DNA of 64,000 bases from Planomonospora sp. ID82291 (GCF_015711645.1 NZ_JABTEX010000001.1:1426001-1490000); one strand, 5' to 3'; positions 31,866 through 37,631 are shown, counted from the stretch's first letter. Translations and numbers: made by a program. Notes: generated from the sequence alone by a model not told the origin.

Positions 31866-33299
31866 ATGTCGTGGGTGGGGAGATCCGCAGCGGAGATCGC
31901 GGAGGCCGTGCGGCAGGGGAAGGCCACGGCCCCGCGGGTCGTCGGGGAGCACCTCGACGCCATCGCCGAACGCGACGGGCGCATCGGGGCGTTCCGCACG
32001 GTCCGGGCCGAGGCCGCGCTCGCCGAGGCGCACGCCGTCCAGGAGCGCGGGGACCTGGCGGAGCTGCCGCTGGCCGGGGTGCCCGTGGCGGTCAAGGACA
32101 ACGTCGCGGTCCGCGGCGAGACGCTCCGCAACGGCTCGGCCGCCACCTCCGGCGCCCCCGCGCGCGAGGACCATCCCGTGGTGGCCCGGCTCCGCGCGGC
32201 GGGCGCGGTGGTCGTCGGGATCACCAACGTGCCGGAGCTCTGCCTGGCCGGGTTCTCCGACAGCGTGTACGGCACGGCGCGCAACCCCTGGGACCCCGCC
32301 CGCACCCCCGGCGGCTCGTCGGGCGGGAGCGCCGCGGCCGTGGCGGCGGGGATGGTCCCGCTGGCCCACGGCAACGACGGGCTCGGCTCGCTGCGCATCC
32401 CGGCGGCCTGCTGCGGCCTCGTCACGATCAAGCCCGGCCACGGACTGGTCCCGCCGCCGGAGCACGACTGGCACGCCCTGTCGGAGAACGGCCCGCTCGC
32501 CACGACGGTGGCCGACCTCGCCCTCGCCCTCGCCGTGATGGCCGGCGACATGTCCCTGGCCACGCCCGACCGGACCGAGTCCCTGCGGGTGGGGGAGACG
32601 ATCGACGACTATCCGGGCGGCCTGCTCCCGTCCGAGCCGGTGCGGCTCCGGGTCGCCGTCGCGCCGCGGCCGCTTCCGCCGGGGTTCGCGGTGGACGAGG
32701 AGTTCCAGCGGGCGGTGACCGACGCCGCCCGCACCCTCGGCGCGGCCGGGCACACGGTCGTGGAGCACGGCGCCCGGCTGCCCGTCTGGCTCGGCTCCGC
32801 GGCGGTGGCCACCTGGTTCGCGTGCGCCCGCGAGGACACCGCCGGCCTCGACCGCCGCCGGCTGGAACGGCGCACGAGGGCCCTGGCCCGCGCCGGCAGG
32901 CTCCTCGGCCGGTTCGGCCTGGACGGAGCCGCGGGACGCGACCGCTGGCGGGCCCACGGCGCCGACCAGTGGTTCGGCAACGCCGACGTGCTCGTCACCC
33001 CGGCACTCGCCGCGGTCCCGCCGCCCGCCGCCCGCTGGGGCGAACGCGGCCTGCTGGCCAACGCCCGCGCCAACCTGACCTACGCCCCCGCCACCGCCGC
33101 CTGGAACCTGGCCGGCTGGCCCGCCATGACCGTCCCGTACGACAGGCACTCCACCGGCCTGCCCATCGGCGTGCAGCTCGTCGCCGCCCCCGGAGGCGAG
33201 GCCCAGCTGCTCACCCTGGCCGCCCAGATCGAGGCCGCCCACCCATGGCCCCGCCACGCCGTACCTGGCAGCGCCCTGGATCCGAACAAGCGCCAATGA
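31866..33299 (+). CDS. Amidase-signature family amidase
   Basis: The 477-residue enzyme has the Ser-cisSer-Lys triad: lysine in PVAVKDNVAV, the cis-serine in TPGGSSGGSAAAVAAG, and the nucleophile in GLGSLRIPAACCGL. It hydrolyses amides, with the substrate not deducible. ATG 31866 lies in GGTGTATG without a clear ribosome site. Its end is 24 bp from the convergent DUF262 gene, at the left edge of the low-GC island. Confidence 0.92.
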   Translation: MSWVGRSAAEIAEAVRQGKATAPRVVGEHLDAIAERDGRIGAFRTVRAEAALAEAHAVQERGDLAELPLAGVPVAVKDNVAVRGETLRNGSAATSGAPAREDHPVVARLRAAGAVVVGITNVPELCLAGFSDSVYGTARNPWDPARTPGGSSGGSAAAVAAGMVPLAHGNDGLGSLRIPAACCGLVTIKPGHGLVPPPEHDWHALSENGPLATTVADLALALAVMAGDMSLATPDRTESLRVGETIDDYPGGLLPSEPVRLRVAVAPRPLPPGFAVDEEFQRAVTDAARTLGAAGHTVVEHGARLPVWLGSAAVATWFACAREDTAGLDRRRLERRTRALARAGRLLGRFGLDGAAGRDRWRAHGADQWFGNADVLVTPALAAVPPPAARWGERGLLANARANLTYAPATAAWNLAGWPAMTVPYDRHSTGLPIGVQLVAAPGGEAQLLTLAAQIEAAHPWPRHAVPGSALDPNKRQ

Positions 33300-33323
33300 T
33301 TCAAACCGATCCGCGTTCACTGA

Positions 33324-35057
33324 TCACTCAGTGTCGATCTCAGCGTTTCCCATGGATACGGGAGGAACGACAGCCCCCATGGATTCGATGAAGATCCGTT
33401 CTCGTCGGGCCAGCTCGGCCGCCCGAAGCCCGATGAAGGCCTCGTCGTCCCCGTCCGCCAGCCGCGCGAATGCCTCATCGGAGATGCCGAGATCACTTCC
33501 GCCGTCCGAGGACGAAGTGCGCGCGTCGAGCAGATATGACCGTGCGGTGACGCCAGAACTGGTTTCCAGTATCACGCGGTTGGCAGGGTTCGATCCGTTG
33601 ACCAGGCCGACCTTGTTCGAAACCCTTCGGAAGGCCGCCGTATCAAGGTTCCGGATAGCGTCGATCGCCTCATAGGGACGGCCTTTTGAGGTGTATCGGA
33701 CGGGGAACTCTCTGAGCTCCCACAGCAGATAGGCACGGACGCGTGCGCTGCGGAGGTCGAACCTGTCCGGGTAGGGGCGAGCCCGCTGGTCGGAGAAGTC
33801 GAACATGCCCTGCCCGCCCTCGAAATGAGAGAGGTTCTTCTCCCCGGTGGCGAACGCTCGCATGTCCTGGATGGACTGCCTGCTCGTGGTCGAGTTCACA
33901 CTGGCGAACTGCCCTGCCCACGAGGTGATCCAGAACCACCGGATCAATACATCGATCTGCTCATTGGAGGGATGCGGGCACAGATGGAAGAACAACGTGA
34001 GCAGCATGAGCTGATTATTATAGGGGATCAGGCGCGCAAGCGGAACTCCGACCCGGTGACGAAGAAATCCGACCGCCGAGGAAAGGGCGACGTCCATATC
34101 CTGAACCGCCTGGGAGACCTTGCCCTCCACCCGTCTGGCCAGCACGTCCCAGTGCGCACCTGTCACTTCCTCTTCTCCGGCGACGGCCAGCACCGCACGG
34201 AACCCCGTCGTCGAATTGATCTCCCCAAACCCCTCACCGGCGATCCGTTCCAGGATCGCGGCGATACTGTTGGCGAGACTTTCCTCACCCTGCCCCTTGT
34301 AGGTCAGTGCGGAGACCATCTGATCGGGGCTCATGGACTGCCCCTTGCTGTTCACCCGCGAGAATACTTCGACAGCCTGCTTCAGGCTCCCTCCGAGGAG
34401 GGTGACCACGGAGACCTTGTACGACTTGATCCGCTGGGCGACCTGCTCGCCTTCTTCGATCAGCTCGTCGTAGTGGGGGCTGTTGGCCATGTTCTTTGCC
34501 AGGCTTCGGGCGTAGGCGAGAAAATCAAGGGTCCGGAGCACCGATCGCACCGGCAGGTAGTTCGCAGGCGGTGGTCCCGGTTTCCGCCAATGGACATAGC
34601 GATTGGCACGGGAATCGCCTTCGCCGAGGACTCGGTAGACACGCCAGATCCAAGCGGCGGGATCGTCCATCAGATCGGCGTCAGGCCGATAGAGGCATGC
34701 GTACAGGGTCGACAAGCGCTGATGGCCATCAAGGATGTATGTGATGCTCTTTCCGGGCGTCGCATCAGGTATACGCAGGCCGCCGACATGCCCGAGGCTT
34801 TCGAGGCCCGCAGGCGTGTCCCACAGAAGCATGCTGCCGATCGGGTAACCGCGCTCGATGCTGTCGAACAGGTCCAGCATCTGATCAGGCCGCCAGACGA
34901 AAGGCCGCTGGAATTTCGGAACGCGTAGATGCCCCTTCTGCACATCGTCAAGAAAAGTCTCCAGAAGGTTGACGTCAGGCCGTACGCCGATTTCCCCCCC
35001 GGTTGCCGCATACTCTTCGGGACCATCCAGTCCACGCTCGTCCTGCCTGTCGGGCAT
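33324..35057 (-). CDS. DUF262 (GmrSD N-terminal/ParB-like) protein of a candidate defence island
   Basis: The 577-residue protein has the DUF262 hallmarks: VPKFQRPFVWR (46-56), SIERGYPIGSMLLWDTP (66-82), YILDGHQRLSTLYA with the DGxQR motif (107-120), and FSRVNSKGQSMSPDQM. DUF262 is the NTP-sensing, ParB/Srx-like part of the type IV restriction enzyme GmrSD and of BrxU-type proteins. No DUF1524/HNH nuclease domain is visible in the C-terminal half. It starts nine bases after the TOPRIM-like gene stop. The DNA is lower in GC than the neighbourhood and uses codons such as ATA and AGA, which supports transfer. It ends at the CACTGA/TCAGTG inverted repeat (33318-33333). Confidence 0.85.
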   Translation of the reverse strand: MPDRQDERGLDGPEEYAATGGEIGVRPDVNLLETFLDDVQKGHLRVPKFQRPFVWRPDQMLDLFDSIERGYPIGSMLLWDTPAGLESLGHVGGLRIPDATPGKSITYILDGHQRLSTLYACLYRPDADLMDDPAAWIWRVYRVLGEGDSRANRYVHWRKPGPPPANYLPVRSVLRTLDFLAYARSLAKNMANSPHYDELIEEGEQVAQRIKSYKVSVVTLLGGSLKQAVEVFSRVNSKGQSMSPDQMVSALTYKGQGEESLANSIAAILERIAGEGFGEINSTTGFRAVLAVAGEEEVTGAHWDVLARRVEGKVSQAVQDMDVALSSAVGFLRHRVGVPLARLIPYNNQLMLLTLFFHLCPHPSNEQIDVLIRWFWITSWAGQFASVNSTTSRQSIQDMRAFATGEKNLSHFEGGQGMFDFSDQRARPYPDRFDLRSARVRAYLLWELREFPVRYTSKGRPYEAIDAIRNLDTAAFRRVSNKVGLVNGSNPANRVILETSSGVTARSYLLDARTSSSDGGSDLGISDEAFARLADGDDEAFIGLRAAELARRERIFIESMGAVVPPVSMGNAEIDTE

Positions 35058-35066
35058 ACCTTTTCC

Positions 35067-36032
35067 CTAAATAATTTCTCGTATCAGTGCGAGCAGTTCT
35101 CGTAACTCCTGGCATACGGCCGGACCGAGGGCGGAGAAATCAGACTCGTCGATGTTACCCGCTTTCGCCTCCCGCTCGAGGAGCAGGGTGAGACCTTCAC
35201 CGAATCCGTTTCGCAAACCGATCTTCATCTGCTCCGAAAGCTGACCGTAAAGCTCTCTCTGAACGTCGGGAATGCTCACGCATTTATTCCTCCGATCAGA
35301 GAAACCGTTCTTGAAATCAAAGTGAGCACGCTGATCCGGATTGAGCGACTTCAAGCAATCGATCCTCGAAGCGAGTTCGCCTCTGCGCCCGGCCGCTGCG
35401 GCCAAGACTCGGTTCGGCACATAGTTTTCCGCCTCTCGAAAACGTAATACATGTCCAGCGAGGCCAGACTCGGACAGTTTCTCCACTGCGGAGTCGTGTT
35501 TCGACGGTGCGCCGGGCGTCAGACGATCGCTGTCGAGCAGAAAAGCCACGCGCTTCACCCTGCGGAAGGAGGACCCCTCGTTCTTCACGACTTTGGGGAC
35601 CTCGCCGCTACCGCCGCCTTGAACGAACTCCAGCCATCCCTTCGCGCACGCTTCCACGATCCCGTCCGCATCGAAGACATGGGCGAGAGCAAGAACGAAG
35701 GCCCTGTCGCCCTCCTGGTTCTCCACGACGAACCGCGCCGACTTACCGAGATCCCACACGTGATCGGCCAAGCTCTCACCAGTGATCGTGACCGTACGCG
35801 GCCTGGACCCCGCGGTACCCGTCCAGGCCTGGCTTACCAGACCCTTCCGGGCCAGCAGCCCATAGGTCTGGGACCTCTTCGGCGCATGATCTCGGAAGTA
35901 GCCGTCCACCAGATCAAGCTGACCTGGATCGACCACCCAGATGTGACGGCTCTCAACGAAATGCTGCATCAGCGTGACGATCAGGCCGAACCCGTCTTCG
36001 GTGAAGGCGTCACCTCCGATCTCAACCCTCAT
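35067..36032 (-). CDS. TOPRIM-like protein (AriB/DUF4435-like or OLD-like nuclease candidate)
   Basis: The 321-residue protein has weak but ordered TOPRIM features: FVVENQEGD (Glu104 to Asp109), a hydrophobic strand ending RVAFLLDSDR (Asp167, Asp169), then FREAENYVPNRVL (Glu200-Tyr204), resembling the R..ENY segment of DUF4435/AriB and some OLD TOPRIM domains. About 100 N-terminal residues form a separate module beginning MRVEIGGDAF. The catalytic assignment is an inference. The start ATG 36032 overlaps the AAA ATPase gene by 11 bp. This is among the lowest-GC coding sequence of the window (some 60-base stretches near 45-55%). Confidence 0.6.
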   Translation of the reverse strand: MRVEIGGDAFTEDGFGLIVTLMQHFVESRHIWVVDPGQLDLVDGYFRDHAPKRSQTYGLLARKGLVSQAWTGTAGSRPRTVTITGESLADHVWDLGKSARFVVENQEGDRAFVLALAHVFDADGIVEACAKGWLEFVQGGGSGEVPKVVKNEGSSFRRVKRVAFLLDSDRLTPGAPSKHDSAVEKLSESGLAGHVLRFREAENYVPNRVLAAAAGRRGELASRIDCLKSLNPDQRAHFDFKNGFSDRRNKCVSIPDVQRELYGQLSEQMKIGLRNGFGEGLTLLLEREAKAGNIDESDFSALGPAVCQELRELLALIREII

Positions 36033-37296
36033 GGCACTCTCGGGCGAACTGCGCCTCGGCCAGTTTCTTCGTCTCTTCGAAATCCTCCGAGAAGACTCCG
36101 CTGGGCCAGTAGTCGAGATTCCCGAGACGGTCTATTCCGATACGCCGCACCCATGACGAGCCCGCGTCGTGGTCCACGAAGTAGACAGCCACGTCGTCTG
36201 GTGGAATCCGCCCTTCTGCGATACGGCGGCGGATCCTGAGCAACATGGTCTCACTATGGGTCTCGATCAGGAAGCGGCCCGTCTGCTGCTGCGCTCCAGC
36301 GATGAACAGATCCGCCAGCAACGCATGGAATGCTGGATGCAGGTGCAGTTCGGGCTCCTCGATCACATGCAGTGTGCCTTGCCGGAGAGCCTTCCTGTTG
36401 ACCGTGTCGTACGCCCGCTGCACAAGCAGGGGCAAAACCTGTGCGACTCCGGTGCCCGAATCGAGGAGGTTCACGCTGAGTTCCGGATTGGTAAGCGACC
36501 GGAGGTTGACCGCGTACATCGGTCCCTGCTGCTCGATCTCAAGCCGCCAGCCTGCCAGGCTGTCCCCGAGAAGCCGGTTCACCTGATCCAGGAGAACACG
36601 TTCGCCCCGAACATGGTCGTTCACCAGCATGCCCGCCGCGTTCTCACCCACCGACCCGACGTCCGCTGCGATGCGGGACGGCAACCGGATGAGGCGAGAA
36701 GGCCGCTGCCGGTAGGCGCTCAGATACTGGATCTCCCCGAAGCACCGCCGCACATCGTATTCAAGGCCAGCGAGCCAGTCGATGTGGTCGGGATCCGTTC
36801 CCGATCTATCCGTTACCACGGGGATCAGACCGCGAAAACGAATTTTCATCTCAACGGGCGGTCGGCTTCTCAAGGTCATCGAATAGGAGCGTCCGGCGTC
36901 TTCCGCAAGCCACTCCAGCCGCAGAGAACGCCCGCCGTCGGCCACTCTCAGCTCCCTGACGAACTGTATCTGCCGCTCGGCGATATTCTGGATGGTCGCT
37001 TTGATCTCGATCGCCCTGCCCGGCCCGCCAACCACGAACTCGAATCTGAGCGCTCGATGCACATTCCGGCCGTAGACGAGGTCCAGATAATCAGGAGGAT
37101 CGTCGCCCAGGGCCTCCAAATCGAGAGGAAGAGTGGAGTCTGTGCGAACTCCGGTTTCAAGGAGAAGAGGAAGTCGGGTCAGCGCGCTTTTCCCGGAGTT
37201 GTTCTTGCCGAGGATGATCGTGATGGGACGGAGCTCGATCTCCTGTCGCTCTTTGAAGCAGCGATAGTTCTCAACCGCCATACGCAGCAGACCCAT
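36022..37296 (-). CDS. AAA/SMC-like ATPase with DUF3696-type C-terminus, defence island
   Basis: The 424-residue protein has a RecF/SMC-style ATPase: ENYRCFKERQEIELRP then Walker A LGKNNSGKS (29-37), ABC-like signature LLDSGTGVAQVLPLL (277-291), Walker B TLHVIEEPELHLHP (308-321), and an H-loop FLIETHSETMLLRIR. The C-terminal YWPSGVFSEDFEETKKL resembles DUF3696. In PARIS (AriA) and OLD/Gabija systems similar ATPases sense phage and control a TOPRIM nuclease. The gene heads a three-gene operon with the TOPRIM-like and DUF262 genes. ATG 37296 has no strong ribosome site; ATG 37281 is an alternative. Confidence 0.88.
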   Translation of the reverse strand: MGLLRMAVENYRCFKERQEIELRPITIILGKNNSGKSALTRLPLLLETGVRTDSTLPLDLEALGDDPPDYLDLVYGRNVHRALRFEFVVGGPGRAIEIKATIQNIAERQIQFVRELRVADGGRSLRLEWLAEDAGRSYSMTLRSRPPVEMKIRFRGLIPVVTDRSGTDPDHIDWLAGLEYDVRRCFGEIQYLSAYRQRPSRLIRLPSRIAADVGSVGENAAGMLVNDHVRGERVLLDQVNRLLGDSLAGWRLEIEQQGPMYAVNLRSLTNPELSVNLLDSGTGVAQVLPLLVQRAYDTVNRKALRQGTLHVIEEPELHLHPAFHALLADLFIAGAQQQTGRFLIETHSETMLLRIRRRIAEGRIPPDDVAVYFVDHDAGSSWVRRIGIDRLGNLDYWPSGVFSEDFEETKKLAEAQFARECHEG

Positions 37297-37561
37297 GAGG
37301 TAACTCTAGCCTGATCAAAGTGATCGGCATCGACCTTGCGACAATTGCTCAAAGCCCGCCTCGGCGAAGGACGGTCTCCGTCGGCCCCGGTGTCTTGCCG
37401 TGGAGCTTCGGGAGGGCATGAGCACGCAAGCCGGTCCGGTGAGGGCTCCGCGCTTCTCTTCGATGACCTCGACCGGCGATCGAAGACGGACGTTGCCCGG
37501 AGGCCCTCACCGCAGGCCGACAACGTGGCCACGCGTCGCGCCGATCTGTTGGGGCCAGAAG
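37297..37561. other. Gap upstream of the AAA ATPase gene
   Basis: This stretch must hold the promoter of the three-gene island. TGATCAAAGTGATCGGCATCGACC (37313-37335) contains a TGATC direct repeat. Short open frames here lack ribosome sites and coding character. No integrase, att-like repeat or tRNA was seen. Confidence 0.5.
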
Positions 37562-37595
37562 CCCGGTCAAGGGATACATGGATCTCTTGACCGGG
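37562..37595 (-). terminator. Strong hairpin after the truncated aldehyde dehydrogenase gene
   Basis: CCCGGTCAAGGGAT (37562-37575) and ATCTCTTGACCGGG (37582-37595) form a 14-bp stem with a six-base loop; one pair is G-T. It lies 37 bp beyond the stop of the truncated ALDH gene on the minus strand. There is no U tract, so termination rather than another hairpin role is an inference. Confidence 0.55.
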
Positions 37596-37631
37596 ATCCG
37601 GCTCTGCGGGAAGGGGCTCGACTCCGCGCGG

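What the first reader, a model, noticed from the sequence alone, without database searches (positions are those of the whole stretch)
33324..37296. Three-gene AAA ATPase / TOPRIM-like / DUF262 island, candidate new defence system
Seen: three overlapping or closely spaced genes on the minus strand (11-bp overlap, then 9-bp gap) with visibly lower GC and different codon use than the flanks. Known: ATPase-TOPRIM pairs form PARIS (AriA/AriB) and OLD/Gabija systems; DUF262 is the sensor/NTPase half of GmrSD and BrxU-type restriction. Inference: the ATPase holds a TOPRIM nuclease inactive and DUF262 adds a second sensing or restriction activity, as one combined abortive-infection or restriction system. 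I know no described system with this exact trio.
Basis: partly seen in the sequence, partly recalled or inferred. Interest (0 to 1): 0.88.

Follow-up and report, generated by a model that had tools for sequence, protein, structure and literature searches.

The report
ATPase–TOPRIM–DUF262 phage-defence operon (PDC-M55)
A small, recently acquired set of three genes in an actinobacterium is very probably an anti-phage defence system, in which an ATPase and a DNA/nucleotide sensor control a TOPRIM nuclease; the same trio is already listed in a defence database as an untested candidate (PDC-M55), so its new value is the predicted mechanism and a version on enterobacterial plasmids and a prophage that could be tested in laboratory E. 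coli.

Summary
A congener has the empty site, so the genes arrived as one 4.37-kb insert. The middle protein is a TOPRIM of the OLD type, by invariant motifs, a predicted fold and a profile match. Linkage is strict: in all 24 independent loci with a full-length middle gene, ATPase-TOPRIM-DUF262 occur in that order on one strand, in Actinomycetota, on Leclercia IncFII plasmids and in a P2-like prophage. Several copies sit beside DISARM or BREX genes, and the prophage copy lies in the known P2 defence hotspot. The novelty claim fails: PADLOC-DB (2023) already holds full-length models of all three as PDC-M55A/B/C. I found no paper describing or testing it. Most likely it works like PARIS, an OLD-type ATPase restraining a TOPRIM effector, with DUF262 as an added sensor. 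DUF262 lacks the HNH nuclease of GmrSD/BrxU. It is neither PARIS nor Menshen.

The parts
33261..37629 (.). the acquired insert (4369 bp): trio plus about 330 bp of leader; no integrase or transposase inside
   Evidence: flanks are contiguous in the congener G001, 36 bp apart; GC 0.610 against 0.729 for the rest
36022..37296 (-). gene A, OLD-type ABC/AAA_15 ATPase, 424 aa (PDC-M55A)
   Evidence: Pfam AAA_15 2.4e-21 and DUF3696 1.2e-7; PADLOC PDC-M55A 4e-182; Walker A GKNNSGKS, EEPELHLHP and ETHSE conserved; nearest solved sequence 6p74 OLD
37186..37209 (-). Walker A motif GKNNSGKS of gene A (residues 30-37)
   Evidence: sequence; G30, N32, N33, G35 and K36 invariant in 21 homologues
36022..36032 (-). 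11-bp overlap of genes A and B, kept in related loci
   Evidence: coordinates in related loci
35067..36032 (-). gene B, TOPRIM protein, 321 aa (PDC-M55B); probable nuclease effector
   Evidence: PADLOC PDC-M55B 7.9e-119; AlphaFold2 pLDDT 84, pTM 0.83; top PDB fold match is the OLD C-terminal region 6nk8_B, prob 0.94; OLD-TOPRIM profile match
35415..35738 (-). TOPRIM core of gene B (about residues 99-206): E104/D109, G140-G141, D167xD169, R199..E202-N203-Y204-P206
   Evidence: invariant in 22 actinobacterial homologues and in the Leclercia plasmid homologue; strand/helix order
33324..35057 (-). gene C, DUF262 (GmrSD_N) NTPase/sensor, 577 aa (PDC-M55C), without HNH
   Evidence: Pfam GmrSD_N 3.8e-25 at residues 32-250 only; PADLOC PDC-M55C 2e-253; nearest solved sequence BrxU 7p9k
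34716..34730 (-). DUF262 nucleotide-pocket motif DGHQR (residues 110-114); canonical form DGQQR
   Evidence: invariant as DGHQR in 19 of 19 actinobacterial sequences; DGQQR in the Leclercia homologue

Best explanation
The trio is a mobile three-gene anti-phage system (candidate PDC-M55). Gene A, an OLD-type ABC ATPase, assembles with gene B, a TOPRIM nuclease, and keeps it inactive. Gene C, a DUF262 NTPase of the GmrSD/BrxU type without its own nuclease, senses infection (phage DNA, its modification or a phage protein) and, through NTP hydrolysis, signals to the A-B complex. Released or activated B then cuts nucleic acid (tRNA as in AriB, or DNA as in OLD/GajA) and stops phage growth, probably at the cost of the infected cell. 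Shown here: gene content, conserved order, TOPRIM identity of B, absence of a detectable HNH in C, mobility, and placement of several copies in defence neighbourhoods. Inferred: complex formation, direction of control, substrate, trigger, outcome for the cell.
For: Each gene matches a dedicated defence-candidate model full length. All 24 independent loci with a full-length B keep A-B-C on one strand, in Actinomycetota, on Leclercia IncFII plasmids and in a P2-like prophage, so the three proteins very probably act together. B has invariant TOPRIM motifs, a confident model with the TOPRIM strand/helix order, a top PDB fold match to an OLD C-terminal region, and a profile match to OLD TOPRIMs with motifs aligned, against about 1% probability or less for unrelated controls. 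Its profile also hits the TOPRIM half of single-chain ATPase-TOPRIM proteins, so A and B look like the two halves of an OLD/PARIS-type module. Neighbourhood: DISARM DrmA next to three loci; BrxHI and PglZ next to L073; the prophage copy lies between gpA and gpQ, a hotspot that has yielded validated systems (PMC9122126). Mechanistic precedent: AriA sequesters AriB and releases it on a phage trigger (PMC12409363). DUF262 is a nucleotide-regulated sensor in BrxU and SspE and is needed in Menshen and Dazbog (PMC10952713).
Against: No phage assay exists for this family in anything I could read. The PDB fold match has a modest E-value (0.014) and low TM-scores (0.28/0.39), presumably because only the TOPRIM core is shared; the profile match has 60% probability; no Pfam TOPRIM family matches B. 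The structure model of C failed (pLDDT 51), so its C-terminal half is undefined. Two otherwise intact loci carry a C cut down to the DUF262 domain, so the C-terminal half may be dispensable. Many loci were not shown to sit in defence islands, including the window's own, which lies between metabolic genes.
Confidence: 0.62

Rival explanations
1. Modification-dependent restriction: DUF262 recognises modified phage DNA, as GmrSD/BrxU do, and directs the ATPase-TOPRIM pair to nick or cut that DNA, so the infected cell survives. The TOPRIM domain replaces the missing HNH nuclease.
For: Outside its own family C is closest by sequence to BrxU/HEC-05 and keeps the three DUF262 motifs but has no HNH; OLD and GajA TOPRIMs act on DNA (PMC12409363).
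Against: The best-studied pair with a free-standing TOPRIM, the arrangement seen here, is PARIS, where AriB is a tRNase and acts suicidally. Nothing links C to a particular modification.
Confidence: 0.25
2. A divergent subtype of Menshen (NsnABC) with a TOPRIM protein in place of NsnC.
For: DUF262 and a DUF3696-bearing OLD-type ATPase are shared; gene A matches NsnB at 1.9e-41 and gene C matches NsnA at 3.3e-8.
Against: Gene order differs (Menshen DUF262-ATPase-NsnC; here ATPase-TOPRIM-DUF262). B shows no relation to NsnC (hhalign probability 1.0), and no TOPRIM-profile hit falls in 11 NsnA loci, five of them with a recognisable NsnB. The same genome carries a separate Menshen.
Confidence: 0.06
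3. A toxin-antitoxin or plasmid/prophage-stabilising module, or competition between mobile elements, rather than immunity of the host cell.
For: It occurs on conjugative plasmids beside a tyrosine recombinase and in a prophage, and as a chromosomal insert with no other cargo.
Against: Three conserved genes with sensor-like domains; neighbours that are DISARM/BREX genes; the P2 hotspot carries anti-phage systems.
Confidence: 0.07

Closest known systems
PDC-M55 (PADLOC-DB 2.0.0, 2023; candidate system without a published test that I could find)
   Same: all three proteins match full length at 1e-118 or better
   Different: no difference found; the database gives no mechanism, and TOPRIM identity, wide linkage and the P2-hotspot copy are added here
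PARIS (AriA/AriB)
   Same: OLD-type ABC ATPase next to a free-standing TOPRIM protein; PADLOC AriA model matches A at 2.4e-22
   Different: no DUF262 gene is part of PARIS; B has no DUF4435 (PF14491) match and no AriB match
Menshen (NsnA/NsnB/NsnC)
   Same: DUF262 protein plus OLD-type ATPase with DUF3696
   Different: third gene NsnC shows no relation to B; gene order differs
OLD nucleases and Gabija GajA
   Same: ABC ATPase and TOPRIM working together; B profile hits the TOPRIM half of single-chain ATPase-TOPRIM proteins
   Different: there one chain, here two; no GajB helicase; an added DUF262 protein
GmrSD / BrxU (HEC-05) type IV restriction
   Same: DUF262 domain with the QR, DGxQR and FxxxN motifs; BrxU 7p9k is the only solved relative of C
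   Different: no DUF1524/HNH domain and no conserved C-terminal histidine in C

Membership tests
PDC-M55 | full-length match to the M55A, M55B and M55C models | tested here: met
   4e-182, 7.9e-119, 2e-253; best model for each protein
PDC-M55 | the three genes adjacent on one strand | tested here: met
   window and related loci
PDC-M55 | anti-phage activity | not testable with these tools
   no assay; no paper names PDC-M55 in the held library
PARIS | OLD-type ATPase AriA | tested here: inconclusive
   AriA models match at 2.4e-22 and 7.4e-11, far below PDC-M55A
PARIS | AriB (DUF4435 TOPRIM) | tested here: not met
   no PF14491 match and no AriB model hit up to E 1, though B is a TOPRIM
PARIS | two-gene or fused system | tested here: not met
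   a DUF262 gene is present at all 24 loci
Menshen | NsnA-type DUF262 protein | tested here: not met
   NsnA model only 3.3e-8 against PDC-M55C 2e-253
Menshen | NsnB-type ATPase | tested here: inconclusive
   NsnB 1.9e-41, clearly related, but PDC-M55A 4e-182
Menshen | NsnC | tested here: not met
   no NsnC hit for B; hhalign probability 1.0
OLD-type TOPRIM | acidic E...DxD signature in a Rossmann-like TOPRIM fold | tested here: met
   E104, D167, D169 invariant; fold; profile
OLD-type TOPRIM | nuclease activity | not testable with these tools
   none
GmrSD / BrxU | DUF262 with QR, DGxQR, FxxxN motifs | tested here: met
   Pfam GmrSD_N 3.8e-25; motifs at Q50-R51, D110-R114, F232..N236
GmrSD / BrxU | DUF1524 His-Me nuclease domain | tested here: not met
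   no Pfam match; no histidine conserved in at least 65% of sequences after residue 358

The most novel reading that the evidence does not exclude
A three-component immune system in which a nuclease-less DUF262 NTPase acts as a separate sensor, for example of modified phage DNA or of a DNA-mimicking anti-restriction protein, that licenses a PARIS-like OLD-ABC/TOPRIM pair. This would link type IV-style DNA sensing to a suicidal TOPRIM effector, and would be a second DUF262 + OLD-ABC chassis beside Menshen with a different third protein.
Probability: 0.35. Interest if true: 0.7.

Novelty: new member of a known kind. Interest (0 to 1): 0.45.

Why it matters
The family is catalogued but, as far as I could find, untested and undescribed. 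The results here make it testable: B is assigned as the TOPRIM effector with named catalytic residues, the trio is shown to be inseparable across two phyla, and intact enterobacterial copies exist on an IncFII plasmid and in the P2 defence hotspot that could be expressed in E. coli K-12. If it works as proposed it would show how a DUF262 protein without its own nuclease passes on its signal, an open question for Menshen and Dazbog too.

Tried and rejected
Pfam and NCBIfam gave no family for B; PDB sequence search, single and profile, found nothing real. Fold search against viral structures found nothing. The model of C was too poor to use, so its C-terminal half stays unassigned. E. coli genomes hold no copy by blastn and deposited phages none by tblastn. 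Considered and rejected: that the genes are adjacent by chance (24 loci; empty site); that the system is PARIS (no DUF4435/AriB match, extra gene); that it is Menshen (third gene and order differ). The 2025 paper on Menshen domain polymorphism (Li et al., NAR, gkaf357, seen only as a reference in PMC12839542) is not held, so whether it mentions TOPRIM variants could not be checked. PMC10952713 says a Menshen component is a predicted OLD nuclease; I saw no TOPRIM match in the Menshen copy of this genome. A file of the whole genome was not available.

Full report
What is there. Their GC is 0.59-0.615 and GC3 0.69-0.74, against 0.70-0.78 and 0.88-0.97 in neighbouring genes, and the island is the lowest-GC 4.4-kb stretch of the window. 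The 11-bp overlap recurs in related loci (coordinates), which suggests translational coupling.

How it got there. In another species of the same genus (G001) the left flank (window up to 33260, 94% identity) and the right flank (window from 37630, 92%) are adjacent, 36 bp apart. The insert is therefore window 33261-37629: the trio and a leader of about 330 bp, between an amidase gene and an aldehyde dehydrogenase gene (names from the sequence, not searched), with no integrase, transposase or tRNA at the junction. The flank match is clean on both sides; I did not find a mobility gene to explain it.

The identity of genes A and C. Gene A has AAA_15 and DUF3696 matches and the conserved Walker A, EEPELHLHP and ETHSE motifs; its nearest solved sequence is an OLD-family nuclease, 6p74 (4e-12), then GajA. 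PMC12839542 argues that such ATPases are OLD-type ABC ATPases and not true AAA+. Gene C has GmrSD_N/DUF262 over residues 32-250 and nothing recognisable after it. The three DUF262 motifs (QR, DGQQR, FxxxN; listed in PMC11411939) are all there; the middle one is DGHQR in all 19 actinobacterial sequences, a family signature, and DGQQR in the Leclercia protein. Its only solved relative is 7p9k, which I take to be BrxU from the entry. There is no conserved C-terminal histidine for an HNH/His-Me site.

Gene B is a TOPRIM protein. Four lines agree. (i) Residues invariant in 22 actinobacterial homologues include E104, D109, G140-G141, D167, D169, R199, E202-N203-Y204 and P206, and these persist in the 22%-identical Leclercia protein. 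(ii) The AlphaFold2 model (pLDDT 84, pTM 0.83) has the alternating strand/helix order with E104 just after one strand (99-103) and D167-x-D169 at the end of another (162-167). (iii) The top PDB fold match is the C-terminal region of the Burkholderia OLD protein, 6nk8_B, probability 0.94, with every other listed hit at 0.14 or lower; the E-value is only 0.014 and the TM-scores are low. (iv) A profile comparison with OLD-type TOPRIM sequences aligns the VEN..D, GG and LxDxD motifs (probability 60%, E 8.8e-5 for one comparison); the controls, B against NsnC, A against B and C against the OLD TOPRIMs, gave 1.0% or less. In addition the B profile hits the TOPRIM half of three single-chain ATPase-TOPRIM proteins (L011, L012, L041), in one of them across all the motifs. 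The same kind of evidence, an ATPase-TOPRIM pair that occurs split and fused, was used for PARIS (PMC9122126). An N-terminal alpha/beta region of B (residues 1-97) has no assignment.

Linkage. A search of 343 genomes of the bacterium's own family found B in 23, of which 21 full length, in 15 of 68 genera; across the phylum it is sparse (4 of 396, two of these only partial hits to single-chain proteins). With the loci from genome contigs there are 22 distinct actinobacterial full-length loci. Every one has A before and C after B on the same strand. Beyond the phylum, the trio is on two Leclercia adecarboxylata IncFII conjugative plasmids beside a tyrosine recombinase, and all three of those proteins have PDC-M55 as best PADLOC model. 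It is also in a P2-like prophage contig. Counting the two plasmids once, that is 24 independent loci without exception. Broken copies exist: apparent frameshifts in A and C in Acrocarpospora corrugata, an IS1 inside B on the second Leclercia plasmid, and a remnant in G535 in which A and B are joined by an internal deletion.

Defence context. Of the flanking genes of 21 actinobacterial loci (123 proteins scanned), DISARM DrmA lies next to the trio in three, and DrmB and BrxD models are matched in two members each. L073 is flanked by BrxHI and PglZ, L079 by a Mokosh-like gene, L074 by a type I methyltransferase-like gene. The prophage copy lies between gpA (phrog_91) and the portal gene gpQ (phrog_68), exactly the locus where Rousset et al. 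describe old, tin and further systems and cloned several that protect (PMC9122126). The window's own copy is not in a visible defence island.

Is it new? No, as a trio. PADLOC-DB 2.0.0 of 2023 has three consecutive models, PDC-M55A, B and C, that match the three proteins almost end to end. PDC models are putative candidates from the guilt-by-embedding work and most lack validation (PMC12988326). No held paper names PDC-M55, and none combines DUF262, TOPRIM, AAA ATPase and anti-phage. Only three hold both DUF262 and TOPRIM, of which PMC10952713 treats them as separate shared domains and notes the DUF262 + OLD-nuclease pairing in Menshen. So the system is catalogued, with no published mechanism or test that I could find; subscription papers and preprints were not searchable.

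How it most likely works. In PARIS the ATPase AriA binds and sequesters the TOPRIM AriB, and a phage trigger releases it to cut tRNA (PMC12409363). A and B have the same split arrangement, so sequestration is the natural reading, but complex formation was not tested. DUF262 in BrxU and SspE couples recognition of modified DNA to NTP hydrolysis and to the attached HNH nuclease (PMC10952713). Here the nuclease is absent and a TOPRIM protein is present instead, so C is most simply a sensor or regulator of the A-B pair. Two loci with a C reduced to the DUF262 domain and intact A and B (L068, L069) hint that this domain is the essential part, or that those copies are decaying. Whether the outcome is abortive or restrictive is open; I favour abortive.

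Menshen as the nearest relative by composition. The same genome carries a Menshen locus (NsnA, NsnB, NsnC). Its ATPase is related to A, but the order is DUF262-ATPase-NsnC and NsnC shows no relation to B. Among eleven NsnA loci, five have a recognisable NsnB followed by an NsnC-position gene, and no locus gives a hit to the TOPRIM profile. The two systems look like two solutions built on a DUF262 + OLD-ABC pair with different third proteins; that is inference.

Verdict. Interest is moderate: the identity of the effector, the breadth of linkage and the enterobacterial copies make a catalogued unknown directly testable.

Noticed in passing
G000:C7:1886920-1890157 (L019:3891-7158): The same genome holds a second DUF262 + OLD-type ATPase system, a full Menshen (NsnA, NsnB, NsnC).
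   Followed up: yes
L085:4520-8225 (IMGVR_UViG_2884592472_000002): A P2-like prophage carries the trio in the gpA-gpQ defence hotspot.
   Followed up: yes
L083:5281-10264 and L086:7058-12818: Leclercia IncFII plasmids carry the trio beside a tyrosine recombinase; in the second plasmid an IS1 interrupts the TOPRIM gene.
   Followed up: partly
L068:7750-8433 and L069:7750-8508: Two loci of one genus have a DUF262 protein that stops after the DUF262 domain (about 230-250 aa) while ATPase and TOPRIM genes are intact; a similar stop occurs in the remnant L081.
   Followed up: partly
L081:7887-8453: Remnant locus in which the start of the ATPase is joined in frame to the end of the TOPRIM gene by an internal deletion.
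   Followed up: no
L009:6604-10626: In Acrocarpospora corrugata the ATPase and DUF262 genes are split by apparent frameshifts while the TOPRIM gene is open.
   Followed up: no
L080:11157-13130: A second OLD-like ATPase protein (658 aa) lies just downstream of one trio.
   Followed up: no
L006:3164-6661, L008:3160-6666, L078:9779-13333: DISARM DrmA genes directly beside the trio in three genomes, transcribed away from it.
   Followed up: partly
window 35742-36032 (gene B residues 1-97): The N-terminal alpha/beta region of the TOPRIM protein has no match in any library used.
   Followed up: no
L014 (G150:C190:23924-24841): An NsnC homologue in another actinobacterium has one in-frame TGA stop.
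   Followed up: no
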